20,389 bases of DNA, from positions 1 through 20,389 of the forward strand of contig CALIVE010000063.1 in the NCBI GenBank assembly GCA_938048445.1, written 5' to 3'. The notes beneath the pieces were generated by a model. It made no database searches and was not told the DNA's origin. It saw only the letters and a program-made list of their open reading frames with translations. The translations under genes were made by a program, and so were the position numbers. Below, one piece after another: positions 160 through 15,355 of this stretch (positions are counted from its first letter, which is position 1; each line of letters opens with the position of its first letter). This DNA is from Minisyncoccota bacterium. GTDB taxonomy: Bacteria > Patescibacteriota > Minisyncoccia > UBA6257 > HR35.

Positions 160-1110
160 TTAAATTAACTCAATAAACAATCTAAAAGCATTATCAAAAA
201 GTAGATAATTTGGCAAACGATAAGTAATTATTTTTTTATAAAAATCACAATAATTTATTAAGCCTTTATAATTATTATTAAATTTAAAACCAAAAAAATC
301 TGTCCCTAAACCTAAATTGTCTTTACATAATTTTCGAGCATATAAGAATTGTCTATACCAATAAAGAAAACTAACTTTATCTTTTTTTTGAATAGCGTAT
401 GGCAAAAATGTTAAACCAATTATACCTCCTCTTTCTTTAACAGTCTTTAAAATCTCATCATCTAAATTTTGTTCAAAGTCTACTTCTCTTTTAATACCAT
501 TATGGGAAAAAATAAATGGCTTCTTATAATATTTAACAATATCTTTAAAGGTATAAACCGAAGAATGAGCTAAATCAACAACTACTGGCAGTTTTTCTAA
601 AATTTTAATCAACCTAAGTCCATCCTTTGTTAAACCATTTTTAGAGGTCGTCTTTAAAGAAGTAGAAAATTTTGAATCAATATTCCAATTTAAACCAAAA
701 ACTCTAATACCTCTATCAATTAATTTATAGATATCATCGGGTTGATTTAAAAAATTCAAACCCTCTACTCCTAAGATTATTCCAATTTTGTTACTCTCCA
801 AAATATTTCTTAATTCTTTGTTATTTTTAATTAAACGAAAAGCATTGAACTTACTTATCCATTTTAAAAAATTATCTAATCGTTGAAAAAATTTGTTAAA
901 CTTTATCGGAAGCCATTGATTATTAACATATTCAAAAGGGAAAATATTTACTATAGCTATTTTAAGACCTGCTCTTTTAAATTGCGGTAGATCTCCATGT
1001 CTTTTAAAGTCAACCACATCTAAATTTTTGAATTTCATATTCAGAAATTCTGGATATCTAAAATAAACCTCAAGGTCGAGATGAAGATCAAAAATTTTCT
1101 TTTTAGGCAT
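160..1110 (-). CDS. Membrane-dipeptidase family (peptidase M19) metallohydrolase
   Basis: 316-aa amidohydrolase-fold protein of the renal/membrane dipeptidase family, which uses a binuclear zinc site to cleave dipeptides. All expected metal ligands are visible at family spacing: H10 and D12 in DLHLD, the bridging E116 in GVEG, H182 in DLAHSS, H203 in FSHN, and D271 in LGLGTDFFG. The distance H182 to H203 (21 residues) equals that of the mammalian enzyme. No signal peptide is seen, so it is probably cytoplasmic. Its start overlaps the end of the upstream FolE2/MptA-type gene by 8 bp, implying translational coupling. A role with that enzyme is unknown; peptide scavenging or a divergent amidohydrolase reaction are both possible. 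Family assignment is firm, substrate is not. Confidence 0.85.
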   Translation of the reverse strand: MPKKKIFDLHLDLEVYFRYPEFLNMKFKNLDVVDFKRHGDLPQFKRAGLKIAIVNIFPFEYVNNQWLPIKFNKFFQRLDNFLKWISKFNAFRLIKNNKELRNILESNKIGIILGVEGLNFLNQPDDIYKLIDRGIRVFGLNWNIDSKFSTSLKTTSKNGLTKDGLRLIKILEKLPVVVDLAHSSVYTFKDIVKYYKKPFIFSHNGIKREVDFEQNLDDEILKTVKERGGIIGLTFLPYAIQKKDKVSFLYWYRQFLYARKLCKDNLGLGTDFFGFKFNNNYKGLINYCDFYKKIITYRLPNYLLFDNAFRLFIELI

Positions 1111-2188
1111 TAATTTTTAAATTTTTAATAATATTCCCAAAACTATCTTTAATCTCTACTTTTAAATTATGGAAATGAATACTTTCATTAACCTCTACTA
1201 AAATTTCAATAAAGCTTTTGGGGTCTAATTTATTATATAAATTCTTAACAATATTTTTCACAATTTCTCGCGCTGCATCTTCGCAAAATTGTTCTTTAAT
1301 AAGAGCTTCCTTTATAAATTCGAACTCATCTTTACCACTTAATAATTCTCTTGTTATTAGAACACTTTCATCCAAGATAGAATATAGATCTACATAAGTA
1401 ATATTATCTTGAGAATTCTCAATGATCACAGTAGCCTCACCTAAATTAGTATGAGTTCCAAAGTTTATAAATGATGCTAAACGGTAAATTTCTTTATCAT
1501 CAAAGTTTAATCTTTTTAATTTATGGTAAAAATCTCTAATAGCCCATCGCTGAGGACAAGGACAAGCATTCATAAATGGAACAGATAAGCCAAGCTTATA
1601 AATTAGATTATTTGAACCCATAAGCTCAGCCTGGAAGATAACTTTTAAAAGCTCATGAGCTGGTCGCCCCGAAGAATTTTTATTAACTAACTTCTCATAA
1701 TAAAATTCTATTTCTATTTTCCCGGAATTTCTATTTTGAAGCTCAGCAGCGTATTTAAGTAAATTAGTTGCGTAGTGCTTTAAATTAAGACCTAACTCTT
1801 GAAATTGTTGCATAGCTTTTTCTATTCGTGACATATGTAAACCGCGTTGATCAGGAGGTAAATCAAAAAATATCTTAATATCTGCTTCAACTTCGATTAT
1901 TTTTTGTTGATCAAAAATATCTTTAATTTTTATTTTATGCTTTCTATTAGTAACACCAACCTTAGGTAAAGGGAAAATTACGTTTGGCTTAGCCGCTGGC
2001 ATATCAACAAAATGTTTTTCATTAATATTATCAAAGTTATGTATGTTTTTATATTTGAGTAAACACTCTTTATCTTCGGATGGTTCCTTGTTAAGGTTAT
2101 AAAATTCATTAATTTCTTGGTTTACAACTAAAAAAGGCTCGACTTTTTTATTTTTACGTATTATTCTGCTTAAAACTCTTTTTATCAT
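1103..2188 (-). CDS. folE2: GTP cyclohydrolase, FolE2/MptA family (divergent, MptA-like spacing)
   Basis: 361-aa protein of the GTP cyclohydrolase FolE2/MptA family (COG1469), which opens GTP to a dihydroneopterin phosphate, the first step to folate, pterins or 7-deazapurines. Seen: a family start MPAAKPN..KVGV at about 63-79, RGLHMSR (115-121), CPCPQ with metal-ligand candidates C209/C211, H246 in GTHTNLG, and the terminal ESIHFH (335-340). About 35 residues separate CPCPQ from the His, as in archaeal MptA; bacterial FolE2 has about 10. The usual HNQR is replaced by HTNL. The first 62 residues are an unrecognised extension; a shorter start at Met63 is possible. No Shine-Dalgarno. A promoter/hairpin leader lies upstream (2264-2436). 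The symbol is by family only; archaeal-type mptA is equally defensible. Confidence 0.82.
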   Translation of the reverse strand: MIKRVLSRIIRKNKKVEPFLVVNQEINEFYNLNKEPSEDKECLLKYKNIHNFDNINEKHFVDMPAAKPNVIFPLPKVGVTNRKHKIKIKDIFDQQKIIEVEADIKIFFDLPPDQRGLHMSRIEKAMQQFQELGLNLKHYATNLLKYAAELQNRNSGKIEIEFYYEKLVNKNSSGRPAHELLKVIFQAELMGSNNLIYKLGLSVPFMNACPCPQRWAIRDFYHKLKRLNFDDKEIYRLASFINFGTHTNLGEATVIIENSQDNITYVDLYSILDESVLITRELLSGKDEFEFIKEALIKEQFCEDAAREIVKNIVKNLYNKLDPKSFIEILVEVNESIHFHNLKVEIKDSFGNIIKNLKINA

Positions 2189-2266: not shown

Positions 2267-2285
2267 AAGGCCGGGTTGCCCCGGC
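2264..2285 (-). terminator. Compact intrinsic terminator with GCAA tetraloop
   Basis: Read on the minus strand this is GCCGGG-GCAA-CCCGGC followed by CTTTTT: a 6-bp all-GC stem, a GNRA-type loop and a T-tract at 2268-2264. It sits after the sod gene and after the strong promoter at 2407-2436, and 76 bp before the FolE2-type start codon. It therefore ends a short transcript or attenuates the folE2 operon. Confidence 0.75.
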
Positions 2286-2347
2286 TGAAGCGATTTTTAG
2301 AAATAATATTATTTAAATTAAATCACTTCAGCCGGAGCACCTCGGCC
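2269..2347 (-). promoter_or_regulatory. Long leader hairpin overlapping the terminator
   Basis: Arms 2347-2326 and 2290-2269 can form a 22-position stem (20 pairs including one G-U; two mismatches) around a 35-nt loop. The 3' arm contains the whole compact GCAA terminator, so the two folds are mutually exclusive. The 5' arm lies inside the last third of a 24-codon mini-ORF (codons for GRGAPAE), so ribosome position could decide which fold forms. Caution: the long stem also abuts the T-tract, so it could itself terminate. The direction of any switch is not determined by sequence. Confidence 0.6.
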
Positions 2348-2392
2348 AAACAAAATAACAAACAAGATAATTGAATTTATTCTTTTATGCAT
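2318..2392 (-). CDS. Putative 24-aa leader peptide / mini-ORF
   Basis: An ATG 14 nt after the -10 box (about +8 from the predicted transcription start) opens a 24-codon ORF ending in TAA. The peptide has a basic start (MHKRIN), a hydrophobic run IILFVILF, and the tail GRGAPAEVI. Five of 24 residues are Ile. Codons 16-22 form the 5' arm of the long hairpin. It may be an attenuator leader, a tiny hydrophobic membrane peptide, or a chance ORF in a small RNA. No Shine-Dalgarno sequence. Confidence 0.4.
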   Translation of the reverse strand: MHKRINSIILFVILFGRGAPAEVI

Positions 2393-2406: not shown

Positions 2407-2436
2407 ATTTTAGCATAACAAAATTTTGTTTGTCAA
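2407..2436 (-). promoter_or_regulatory. Sigma70-type promoter with 14-bp palindrome in the spacer
   Basis: Minus-strand TTGACA (2436-2431), an 18-bp spacer and TAAAAT (2412-2407) give a near-consensus promoter with a predicted start near 2400. The spacer holds a perfect 14-bp palindrome, AACAAAATTTTGTT (2417-2430), placed where a repressor would block polymerase. The -35 overlaps the stop codon of the sod gene. It drives the mini-ORF/hairpin leader and, by readthrough, the folE2-type operon. Confidence 0.7.
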
Positions 2437-14481: not shown

Positions 14482-14513
14482 AAATCCGATTAGCCGTTTC
14501 GGCAACCGGATTT
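14482..14513 (-). promoter_or_regulatory. 5'-UTR nested hairpin before the TM-helix gene
   Basis: Minus strand AAATCCG...CGGATTT (7-bp outer stem) encloses GCCG-AAA-CGGC, separated by a small asymmetric internal loop (GTT/TAAT). It is not followed by a T-tract and ends 9 nt before the Shine-Dalgarno sequence. It could be an mRNA-stabilising or regulatory element. It matches no riboswitch class I can name. Confidence 0.5.
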
Positions 14514-14535: not shown

Positions 14536-14544
14536 ATTTTAACA
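14536..14544 (-). promoter_or_regulatory. Extended -10 promoter for the TM-helix gene
   Basis: Minus-strand TGTTAAAAT (TG motif at 14544-14543 plus TAAAAT at 14541-14536). No clear -35. Predicted start near 14529 gives a leader of about 68 nt that holds the hairpin. It is divergent from the promoter at 14587-14614. Confidence 0.5.
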
Positions 14545-14586
14545 TAGATTAAAAAAATATTTTTAGAAACTGTGGATAAGATAGTC

Positions 14587-14614
14587 TTGATTTTTAACAT
14601 TTTTGGGTTATAAT
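14587..14614 (+). promoter_or_regulatory. Promoter for the mini-ORF/190-aa gene leader
   Basis: TTGATT (14587-14592), a 16-bp spacer and consensus TATAAT (14609-14614), predicted start near 14621. The first ATG follows the -10 by 14 nt, exactly as in the minus-strand leader at 2392. Confidence 0.7.
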
Positions 14615-14628
14615 TTTATAATAAAAGA

Positions 14629-14694
14629 ATGAATAAGTTACTTTTTGAAAAAATTAATTTGTATAAGAAGTTCATTGTCGCAACCCCGGTATAG
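14629..14694 (+). CDS. Putative 21-aa leader peptide / mini-ORF
   Basis: ATG about 8 nt from the predicted transcription start, 21 codons (begins MNKLLFEKI, ends FIVATPV), stop TAG at 14692-14694. The stop lies one base before the 5' arm of a 16-bp hairpin, so a ribosome finishing this ORF would cover that arm. It could be an attenuator leader or a chance ORF in an untranslated leader. No Shine-Dalgarno. Confidence 0.4.
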   Translation: MNKLLFEKINLYKKFIVATPV

Positions 14695-14695
14695 C

Positions 14696-14750
14696 GGGCC
14701 TATTTGGTTTTTTATTTTTTTAAAATAACCATATAAAACCAAATAGGCCC
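14696..14750 (+). promoter_or_regulatory. Long leader hairpin, candidate antiterminator
   Basis: Perfect 16-bp stem, GGGCCTATTTGGTTTT (14696-14711) with 14735-14750, around a 23-nt AT-rich loop. Its 3' arm shares GGCCC (14746-14750) with the 5' arm of the following terminator, so only one of the two can form. Unlike the 2269-2347 hairpin it does not abut a T-tract. Confidence 0.6.
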
Positions 14751-14768
14751 CAAGAAAAGGGGCCTTTT
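14746..14768 (+). terminator. Intrinsic terminator in the 190-aa gene leader
   Basis: GGCCCC-AAGAAAA-GGGGCC followed by TTTT, then AAAATTTT: 6-bp GC stem (14746-14751 with 14759-14764), 7-nt loop. It lies 14 bp before the downstream ATG, so it would act within the leader as an attenuator rather than after a gene. Confidence 0.65.
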
Positions 14769-14782
14769 AAAATTTTGTAACC

Positions 14783-15355
14783 ATGAACGAAATGCAAATT
14801 TTAGAAAAAATTAAAGAGATAAGGTCCATAGATATTAACCCAATTAAATTAAAAGAATACTTTAATAAACTGACACCTCAAGAAATTGAGGTTTCTTTAG
14901 ATTTTCTAAAAAATTTAGACTTTTATAGGTTTAAAATCGAAAATTTTGAAATTTCTAATGAAGAATCTATGAAAAATCTATTCTTAGTTTTAGCTCTTAA
15001 AAATGAAATTAAAAATAATTTTGAAGAACCCAAAAAGGTTGAAGTAGAACTTTTAAAAGCTATAAATTCCTTAGAAGAAGAAACCAAATATAAAACTGTA
15101 AAGATATATCTTAGTAAGGGAATCCATATTTTAAAAAGCAATATAGATGATATTGAATTTAAATATAAAAAAATTATCTTAAAACACTTTCATGATTTAG
15201 GTGGATTTGAAAACAGTATATGGGGAATAAAAATTAATTATGATTTATTTTTAGATTTAACTAAAAATATAGACTATTCTCTGGTAGAAAAATTGGAAAA
15301 TAAAATAAAAGTTGTAAACAAAGATTCTTTTATTATGCTTATAAACCTATTTTAA
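14783..15355 (+). CDS. 190-aa hypothetical protein, unknown family
   Basis: 190-aa, soluble, Lys/Glu/Asn/Ile-rich and mostly helix-predicted; no signal peptide, membrane segment or catalytic motif I recognise. The N-terminus (MNEMQILEKIKEIRSIDINPIK) could be a helical interaction domain. The ATG at 14783 has a second Met four residues later and no Shine-Dalgarno. It is preceded by a promoter, mini-ORF and alternative hairpins, so expression is likely controlled by premature termination. Its 3' end overlaps the convergent lamin-tail gene by 9 bp. Flanking conserved genes suggest chromosomal rather than mobile origin. Function unknown. Confidence 0.75.
   Translation: MNEMQILEKIKEIRSIDINPIKLKEYFNKLTPQEIEVSLDFLKNLDFYRFKIENFEISNEESMKNLFLVLALKNEIKNNFEEPKKVEVELLKAINSLEEETKYKTVKIYLSKGIHILKSNIDDIEFKYKKIILKHFHDLGGFENSIWGIKINYDLFLDLTKNIDYSLVEKLENKIKVVNKDSFIMLINLF

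What the first reader, a model, noticed from the sequence alone, without database searches (positions are those of the whole stretch)
14587..14782. A second promoter-mini-ORF-hairpin leader with mutually exclusive stems
The plus strand repeats the same architecture at an unrelated locus: TTGATT-16-TATAAT, 14 nt to an ATG, a 21-codon ORF, then two stems that share GGCCC. These are a perfect 16-bp stem whose 5' arm starts just after the stop codon, and a GC terminator with T4 14 bp before the next ATG. A ribosome at the stop codon would mask the first arm and free the terminator, so translation of the leader should reduce expression of the 190-aa gene. The matching ATG spacing at both loci suggests a shared regulatory class.
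Basis: partly seen in the sequence, partly recalled or inferred. Interest (0 to 1): 0.72.

Follow-up and report, generated by a model that had tools for sequence, protein, structure and literature searches.

The report
Ribosome-controlled genetic switch in Patescibacteria
A short leader in front of an uncharacterised gene looks like a conserved on/off switch in a family of tiny, mostly uncultured bacteria: when a ribosome finishes the leader peptide transcription should stop, and when it stalls the gene should be read.

Summary
The finding holds, and comparison strengthens it. All stated features are at the stated coordinates. All 12 homologues of the 190-aa gene with readable upstream DNA (11 family genomes plus L100) share the layout: promoter, 16-30-codon uORF ending just before, in or just past the 5' arm of an antiterminator, and a terminator hairpin sharing the antiterminator's 3' arm. 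The antiterminator covaries (9 of 13 pairs compensatory; score 0.431 vs 0.199 shuffled, 0/500). Ribosome-masked folding predicts the same switch in all 21 leaders tested: stalled part-way = antiterminator, at the stop = terminator. An imperfect scan of one complete genome showed no third case with a gene. Best reading: a ribosome-mediated transcription attenuator, a known kind, in Patescibacteria, without a consistent control-codon run. Signal and in-vivo termination are not shown; the window's T tract is short. The protein, seen in one family of 244 genomes of the order, has a predicted DPP III/DUF6421-like fold.

The parts
14571..14579 (+). TGTGGATAA box (complement TTATCCACA) just upstream of the -35; DnaA-box-like or MraZ-box-like, unassigned
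   Evidence: TGTGGAWAA upstream of the promoter in 10 of 12 leaders (10 of 11, where G005 has TATCCACAG; none in L100). Box plus TTGA: 10 of 44 hits in 17 family genomes are this locus; reversed-pattern control 23.
14587..14614 (+). sigma70-type promoter, TTGATT-16-TATAAT
   Evidence: 2 promoter-like sites found, 1.6 expected from shuffles; -35/-10 pairs in all 11 family homologues and in L100
14629..14694 (+). leader uORF, 21 codons + TAG (MNKLLFEKINLYKKFIVATPV*)
   Evidence: a uORF at this place in 12 of 12 leaders; chance test
14696..14711 (+). segment 2: 5' arm of the antiterminator
14735..14750 (+). segment 3: 3' arm of the antiterminator, overlapping the 5' arm of the terminator
14746..14764 (+). 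terminator hairpin GGCCCC-AAGAAAA-GGGGCC
   Evidence: called only on the minus strand by the consensus scan
14765..14768 (+). short T tract (T4, then AAAATTTT)
14783..15355 (+). 190-aa gene behind the leader; protein with predicted DPP III/DUF6421-like fold (HxxxH absent in this genome's copy)
2407..2436 (-). promoter of the second leader (TTGACA-18-TAAAAT)
2318..2392 (-). uORF of the second leader (MHKRINSIILFVILFGRGAPAEVI*)
2320..2335 (-). second leader: 5' arm of antiterminator
2281..2296 (-). second leader: 3' arm of antiterminator
2270..2285 (-). second leader: terminator hairpin GCCGGG-GCAA-CCCGGC, followed by T5 at 2268-2264
1103..2188 (-). folE2/mptA-like GTP cyclohydrolase, first gene of the operon behind the second leader
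   Evidence: Pfam GCHY-1 E 9.5e-37; NCBIfam MptA and FolE2 models matched below their cut-offs
160..1110 (-). peptidase-M19-like gene, second gene of that operon
   Evidence: Pfam E 1.1e-47; follows folE2 in G000, G001, G008, G005

Best explanation
The element is a ribosome-mediated transcription attenuator. RNA polymerase starts a few bases before a short leader ORF; a ribosome loads and follows. If it translates the peptide to the end, it covers the 5' arm of the antiterminator (segment 2), segment 3 is left to pair with segment 4, the terminator hairpin forms and the 190-aa gene is not transcribed. If the ribosome stalls part-way, before it covers segment 2, segments 2 and 3 pair, the terminator cannot form and polymerase reads into the gene. 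Shown here by sequence comparison: layout, uORF, both stems, covariation, and the ribosome-position switch in silico. Inferred: that the hairpin terminates in vivo, that the uORF is translated, and that the trigger is a general slowdown of elongation (shortage of charged tRNA, or a ribosome inhibitor) rather than one amino acid. A second copy of the same design precedes the GTP cyclohydrolase-M19 operon.
For: Layout in 12 of 12 readable homologues and in 9 of 9 GTP-cyclohydrolase-operon leaders (4 folE2; 5 GTP cyclohydrolase II: identity). Covariation: 89.5% of cells paired, 9 of 13 pairs with compensatory change, score 0.431 vs 0.199 (0/500); further pair types 17 vs 12.8 (7/500); slid registers score at most 0.277. 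Cross-species arm swaps pair worse: antiterminator -24.5 vs -15.7 kcal/mol, terminator -16.0 vs -12.9, 0 of 20,000 permutations each. Ribosome mask: minimum terminator probability along the uORF at most 0.11 and at the stop at least 0.83 in 16 of 16, with footprints of 9, 12 and 15 nt; 5 more leaders have minimum 0.00 and stop 0.67-1.00. The consensus scan finds no promoter-like site between the uORF start and the 190-aa ATG, so the gene seems to need read-through.
Against: No transcript, Term-seq or ribosome data. The window's T tract is only T4 and the consensus scan does not call a plus-strand terminator, but calls the hairpin on the minus strand; G008's tail (TTTAAAAATTT) is weaker still and my scan missed it. 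The untranslated RNA is not uniform: 17 of 21 fold to the antiterminator (G002 only just, 0.41), but G008, G003, G015 and L100 fold to the terminator. Peptides are poorly conserved, so selection on the peptide is uncertain. In G000 arm 2 begins after the stop codon, whereas in the others the ORF runs into it. Folds are equilibrium folds, not cotranscriptional. In the terminator arm test the own pairing was not the best in its row for 6 of 11 species.
Confidence: 0.78

Rival explanations
1. Amino-acid-specific attenuator of the trp/his/ilv type: stalling at particular control codons senses one charged tRNA.
For: In the 9 GTP-cyclohydrolase leaders the nine codons before the switch point are 70% Ile/Leu/Phe/Val in frame against 49% and 50% in the other two frames, e.g. 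IILFVILF in the window. Below-threshold Rfam resemblance to Phe_leader (22.2 bits, gathering 55) and Trp_leader (16.5, gathering 41).
Against: In the 12 190-aa leaders the in-frame value (47%) hardly differs from one neighbouring frame (44%; the other 29%). In 15 pooled uORFs the largest enrichments over the proteome are Cys 1.71 (4 residues), Gly 1.64 and Phe 1.52. The genes behind the leaders are not recognisable amino-acid biosynthesis genes.
Confidence: 0.2
2. The uORF is read out at initiation: any failure to start translation leaves the RNA in the antiterminator form, so the element measures ribosome supply or start-codon recognition rather than stalling.
For: 17 of 21 ribosome-free leaders fold to the antiterminator. 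By my reading the ATG is 8-21 nt from the -10 in 19 of 21 leaders and 34-35 nt in G008 and G005. SD-like motifs precede only 11 of 490 G008 ORFs taken from the first ATG.
Against: G008, G003 and L100 fold to the terminator without a ribosome and switch on only with a ribosome part-way through the uORF; G015 also folds to the terminator when free, but switches on as soon as a ribosome sits on the start codon. Short 5' UTRs are common in G008 (8 of 17) and so are not special to these leaders.
Confidence: 0.25
3. Metabolite riboswitch or protein-binding leader, with the uORF incidental.
For: Mutually exclusive stems are also used by riboswitches; folE genes elsewhere are under riboswitches (recalled).
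Against: No Rfam family reaches its gathering score in the leader. Apart from promoter, box, the two stems and a short C-rich stretch before arm 2, I see nothing conserved in the 190-aa leaders. A uORF is present in 21 of 21 leaders and exceeds chance.
Confidence: 0.05
4. The hairpin is mainly a terminator for minus-strand transcripts, or ends a stand-alone small RNA, and the 190-aa gene is expressed independently.
For: The consensus scan calls the hairpin as a terminator on the minus strand, with a better T tail there than on the plus strand. Promoter-to-hairpin unit of about 150 nt; weak below-threshold sRNA hit (BTnc231).
Against: It does not explain a uORF in 12 of 12, nor an antiterminator that covaries and competes with the hairpin. 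The hairpin ends 9-28 nt before the gene start in the 10 homologues measured and no promoter-like site lies between uORF and gene in the window.
Confidence: 0.07

Closest known systems
whiB7/wblC uORF attenuator (Actinobacteria)
   Same: Full translation of the uORF gives a Rho-independent terminator; disturbed translation gives an antiterminator; responds to antibiotics and amino-acid starvation (passages of review PMC11550727).
   Different: Different gene, phylum and sequences; here the inducer is unknown and the gene is not a WhiB factor.
bmrB-bmrCD attenuator of Bacillus subtilis
   Same: Leader peptide with predicted terminator, antiterminator and anti-antiterminator; the translating ribosome is the sensor (passages of PMC4191407). 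A CCC/GGG pairing before arm 2 could play the third role in some leaders here (inference from folds).
   Different: BmrB is 53 aa and its ORF contains the terminator; the target is a multidrug transporter.
ilvB1/ilvBNC and trp amino-acid attenuators
   Same: A ribosome reaching the stop codon masks the antiterminator so that the terminator forms (passages of PMC13236596).
   Different: Those have dedicated control codons and regulate the matching biosynthesis genes; no such run in the 190-aa leaders.
DPP III (peptidase M49) and DUF6421 / PolE proteins, for the gene product
   Different: About 190 aa instead of 369-722; no HExxGH; HxxxH in 8 of 12 homologues and absent from the window's own copy; best PDB match by sequence E 0.13, another protein; nothing above Pfam or NCBIfam cut-offs in 10 members.

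Membership tests
Ribosome-mediated transcription attenuator | short ORF at the start of the transcript | tested here: met
   12 of 12 homologues, 9 of 9 GTP-cyclohydrolase leaders; chance test on 13. That it is translated was not tested.
Ribosome-mediated transcription attenuator | mutually exclusive antiterminator and terminator hairpins | tested here: met
Ribosome-mediated transcription attenuator | strong U tract making the hairpin an intrinsic terminator | tested here: inconclusive
   window T4 only, plus-strand terminator not called by the consensus scan; G008 weaker; longer T runs in several others
Ribosome-mediated transcription attenuator | ribosome position decides which stem forms | tested here: met
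   in silico only: 16 of 16 vs 24 of 640 shuffles; 5 further leaders switch, 3 of 5 above the strict threshold
Ribosome-mediated transcription attenuator | regulated read-through in vivo | not testable with these tools
   no expression data held
Amino-acid (trp/his/ilv-type) attenuator | run of control codons for the regulated amino acid | tested here: not met
   190-aa leaders. The GTP-cyclohydrolase leaders have an Ile/Leu/Phe bias, but behind them is no such biosynthesis gene.
whiB7/bmrB-type antibiotic-responsive attenuator | induced by ribosome-targeting drugs | not testable with these tools
   needs a reporter assay
Known Rfam cis-regulatory families | score at or above the family gathering threshold | tested here: not met
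   no leader hit at gathering; bacterial leader families below it: Phe_leader 22.2 of 55, Trp_leader 16.5 of 41
Dipeptidyl peptidase III (M49), gene product | HExxGH zinc motif | tested here: not met
   no HExxGH in the 31-row alignment; motif as described in PMC12614342 (passages)
DUF6421 (PolE-like), gene product | HE/DxxHx(21-23)E motif | tested here: not met
   HxxxH in 8 of 12 homologues, as HDxxH in 4 (G003, G013, G004, G015); absent in G000, G001, G008, G012. In the 11 sequences the invariant Glu residues follow 1 and 11 residues later, none at 21-23.
DPP III/DUF6421 fold, gene product | same fold | tested here: inconclusive

The most novel reading that the evidence does not exclude
One lineage-specific translation-stress regulon: in a family of Patescibacteria with few Shine-Dalgarno motifs, stalled ribosomes switch on two units, a small DPP III/DUF6421-fold protein encoded beside the 23S rRNA gene and a GTP cyclohydrolase-M19 operon. 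The two belong to one pterin- or GTP-derived pathway or scavenging response, and the switch is so central that it was kept when FolE2 and GTP cyclohydrolase II were exchanged.
Probability: 0.15. Interest if true: 0.75.

Novelty: new member of a known kind. Interest (0 to 1): 0.55.

Why it matters
Gene regulation in Patescibacteria is little explored. In the rows listed by three text searches of the held library (20, 10 and 8 rows of 1,787, 123 and 72 papers, titles and abstract beginnings seen) I saw no leader-peptide attenuator described for them; other papers and subscription journals were not seen. A conserved ribosome-sensing switch would mean that these very reduced bacteria monitor translation, and would name what they switch on. 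It gives a testable handle on an orphan protein family, and suggests a regulatory leader retained while the enzyme behind it was exchanged for one of another Pfam family.

Tried and rejected
Viral contigs: no relative of the 190-aa protein. Rfam: no leader family at gathering; the 22 weak hits are mostly microRNA models matching the hairpin. Pfam and NCBIfam: nothing above cut-off for the 190-aa family. PADLOC: one weak hit, E 0.0042, in one of three proteins, not pursued. PDB by sequence: one match, E 0.13. Foldseek against viral models: none at E <= 0.001.

Idea that the locus lies at the replication terminus of G008: dropped. I first took a TTWTCCACA cluster at 617 kb for oriC, but it lies upstream of mraZ (Pfam), and the cumulative GC-skew minimum is at about 370 kb and maximum at about 625 kb. 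Idea that the TGTGGAWAA box proves DnaA control: not accepted, because the same word occurs among GTGG repeats upstream of mraZ in G008, and L100 lacks it.

Matching ATG spacing as evidence of a shared class: rejected. Arrest-peptide (RAPP/RAGP-like) reading of the GTP-cyclohydrolase leaders: R-x-x-P in 3 of 9 (RGAP, RGFP, RGYP; peptides), and a ribosome held there would give the terminator state; left as a lead (search listing only). Pro before arm 2 as a control codon: it may be a by-product of a CCC stretch that can pair with arm 2; undecided. Idea that a near-leaderless uORF senses folate/formyl-Met: not tested, not used.

The first genome scan was too strict; the looser scans also miss G008's own 190-aa leader, so 'two units per genome' rests on one genome and an imperfect scan. 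In one search the window plus G008 gave 19 candidates, 5 switching, 3 with a gene; the reversed control gave 21 candidates, 9 switching (4 rows from one place), 1 with a gene. G014's homologue starts at a contig end, so its 190-aa leader is left out of all counts.

Full report
WHAT IS THERE. The window is contig C63 of a 638-kb genome. Its relatives are Patescibacteria: contigs with the same lengths as contigs of three family genomes (G002, G004, G005) are deposited as Candidatus Parcubacteria bacterium KatS3mg096, Patescibacteria group bacterium SKYB30 and Candidatus Paceibacterota bacterium RSWP22. Every feature of the finding is at the stated place: promoter 14587-14614, uORF 14629-14694, 16-bp stem 14696-14711/14735-14750, hairpin 14746-14764 with T4, gene start 14783.

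WHAT A CONSENSUS SCAN SAYS. In 14540-14830 it finds two promoter-like sites (1.6 expected from shuffles) and no plus-strand terminator, because four T are too few for its rule; it calls the hairpin on the minus strand. Single features are thus not impressive in so AT-rich a sequence. The case rests on comparison.

CONSERVATION. A profile search of the family finds the 190-aa protein in 12 of 17 genomes; in 244 genomes of the order it is found in 11, all of this family (G011 falls below the cut there). Eleven of the 12 have upstream DNA, and all 11 have promoter, uORF, antiterminator and terminator hairpin. A twelfth leader, L100, fetched afterwards from a contig labelled Thermodesulfobacteriota that carries similar MscS-like and lamin-tail neighbours (my reading), also has them. 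Nine family proteins compared are 22-52% identical to the window's, and the leaders align poorly outside the stems, so I take survival of the layout as a sign of selection.

STRUCTURE. On the stem alone (11 sequences, 13 pairs) 89.5% of cells pair, 9 pairs show compensatory changes, and the covariation score is 0.431 against 0.199 in shuffles (0 of 500) and at most 0.277 when the register is slid; the weakest measure, further pair types, is reached by 7 of 500 shuffles. One bulged base of G013 was dropped, the arms were placed in register by hand, and the stem was derived from these sequences, all of which favour the true register. Swapping arms between species weakens the antiterminator from -24.5 to -15.7 kcal/mol on average and the terminator from -16.0 to -12.9 (0 of 20,000 permutations each); own arms rank first in their row for 8 of 11 antiterminators and 5 of 11 terminators.

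THE SWITCH. I folded each leader with everything up to a ribosome at each codon masked. In 16 of 16 leaders (11 homologues, L100, 4 folE2) the terminator probability drops to 0.11 or less for some codon and is 0.83 or more at the stop, with three footprint sizes. For the window's leader the antiterminator holds for ribosomes on codons 1 to 17-19 and the terminator from there to the stop. Shuffled leaders with the real hairpin pass in 24 of 640. Five GTP cyclohydrolase II leaders behave alike (minimum 0.00, stop 0.67 to 1.00; 3 of 5 above the strict threshold, shuffles 9 of 200). Without any ribosome 17 of 21 fold to the antiterminator (G002 only just), but G008, G003, G015 and L100 fold to the terminator; in their folds a C-rich stretch before arm 2 tends to pair with it. 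What all 21 share is 'stalled part-way = on, finished = off'. In G008 the 'on' stretch is only two codons, in G003 and L100 seven.

NOT A CLEAR CONTROL CODON, AND SPACING IS ORDINARY. In 15 pooled uORFs the largest enrichments over the G008 proteome are Cys 1.71 (4 residues), Gly 1.64 and Phe 1.52; Asp and Glu are scarce (11 of 334 residues, 3.3% against 11.7%). Nine codons before the switch point are 47% Ile/Leu/Phe/Val in the 190-aa leaders (other frames 44% and 29%) but 70% in the GTP-cyclohydrolase leaders (49% and 50%), so an amino-acid component is possible there. Of 17 G008 ORFs with a strong promoter within 100 nt, 8 start 5-14 nt after the -10, and 11 of 490 ORFs have SD-like motifs (starts taken as the first ATG), so the short distance to the uORF start is ordinary.

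SECOND UNIT. folE2 homologues occur in 4 of 17 family genomes and all 4 have such a leader. The M19 gene that follows occurs in 9 of 17. In the 5 without folE2 a GTP cyclohydrolase II stands in its place (Pfam E 1e-35 to 3.5e-39 in 5 of 5), and all 5 have such a leader. The window's folE2 uORF ends RGAPAEVI* and G009's GTP-cyclohydrolase-II uORF ends RGFPAEVI*; the stems there are also nearly identical, so this may be RNA-level conservation. Either way the leader seems to have outlived an exchange of the enzyme. A promoter-free scan of all of G008, requiring a gene, finds the folE2 leader and nothing else, and nothing in the reversed control; it misses G008's own 190-aa leader. With a promoter requirement the window plus G008 gave 5 switching candidates, 3 with a gene (the window's two leaders and G008's folE2 leader); the reversed control gave 9 switching rows, 1 with a gene. 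The same scan detects 10 of the 11 family 190-aa leaders and 3 of 3 folE2 leaders outside the window.

PROMOTER BOX. TGTGGAWAA lies upstream of the -35 in 10 of 12 leaders. In 17 family genomes box plus TTGA gives 44 hits, 10 of them this locus, against 23 for the reversed pattern, so the other 34 are not far above background. It matches the DnaA box (recalled) but also words in the GTGG repeats before mraZ in G008, so what binds it is open.

VERDICT. A conserved leader with the anatomy of a ribosome-mediated transcription attenuator; a new member of a known kind (closest: whiB7 and bmrB leaders), before an orphan gene and a GTP cyclohydrolase operon in Patescibacteria, for which the rows I saw in three text searches listed none. 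Translation of the uORF, termination in vivo and the signal are not shown.

Noticed in passing
L107-L111 (G009, G010, G004, G011, G014) vs window 160-2188: FolE2-like protein and GTP cyclohydrolase II replace each other at the head of the same operon (cyclohydrolase - M19 - third gene), each behind the same kind of leader. The third gene of G001 has only a weak match to 2-oxoadipate dioxygenase (HGLS, E 0.004, below cut-off).
   Followed up: partly
window 14571-14579: TGTGGAWAA box upstream of the -35, in 10 of 12 leaders; DnaA- or MraZ-box-like.
   Followed up: partly
window 14483-14512: A hairpin (AATCCG...CGGATT) just upstream of the divergent MscS-like gene; inverted repeats of other sequence lie at a similar place in G001, G012 and G008, perhaps a second structured leader on the other strand.
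   Followed up: no
L100 (JAUQQL010000027.1): Contig labelled Thermodesulfobacteriota carries the gene, leader and similar neighbours; possibly a binning error.
   Followed up: no
G008 genome (L051-L070, L075-L086): SD-like motifs precede only 11 of 490 ORFs of 120 aa or more taken from the first ATG, so initiation is apparently mostly SD-independent.
   Followed up: partly
15 leader peptides (window 14629-14694, 2318-2392 and relatives): Leader peptides are poor in Asp and Glu (3.3% vs 11.7% in the proteome) without an obvious reason.
   Followed up: no
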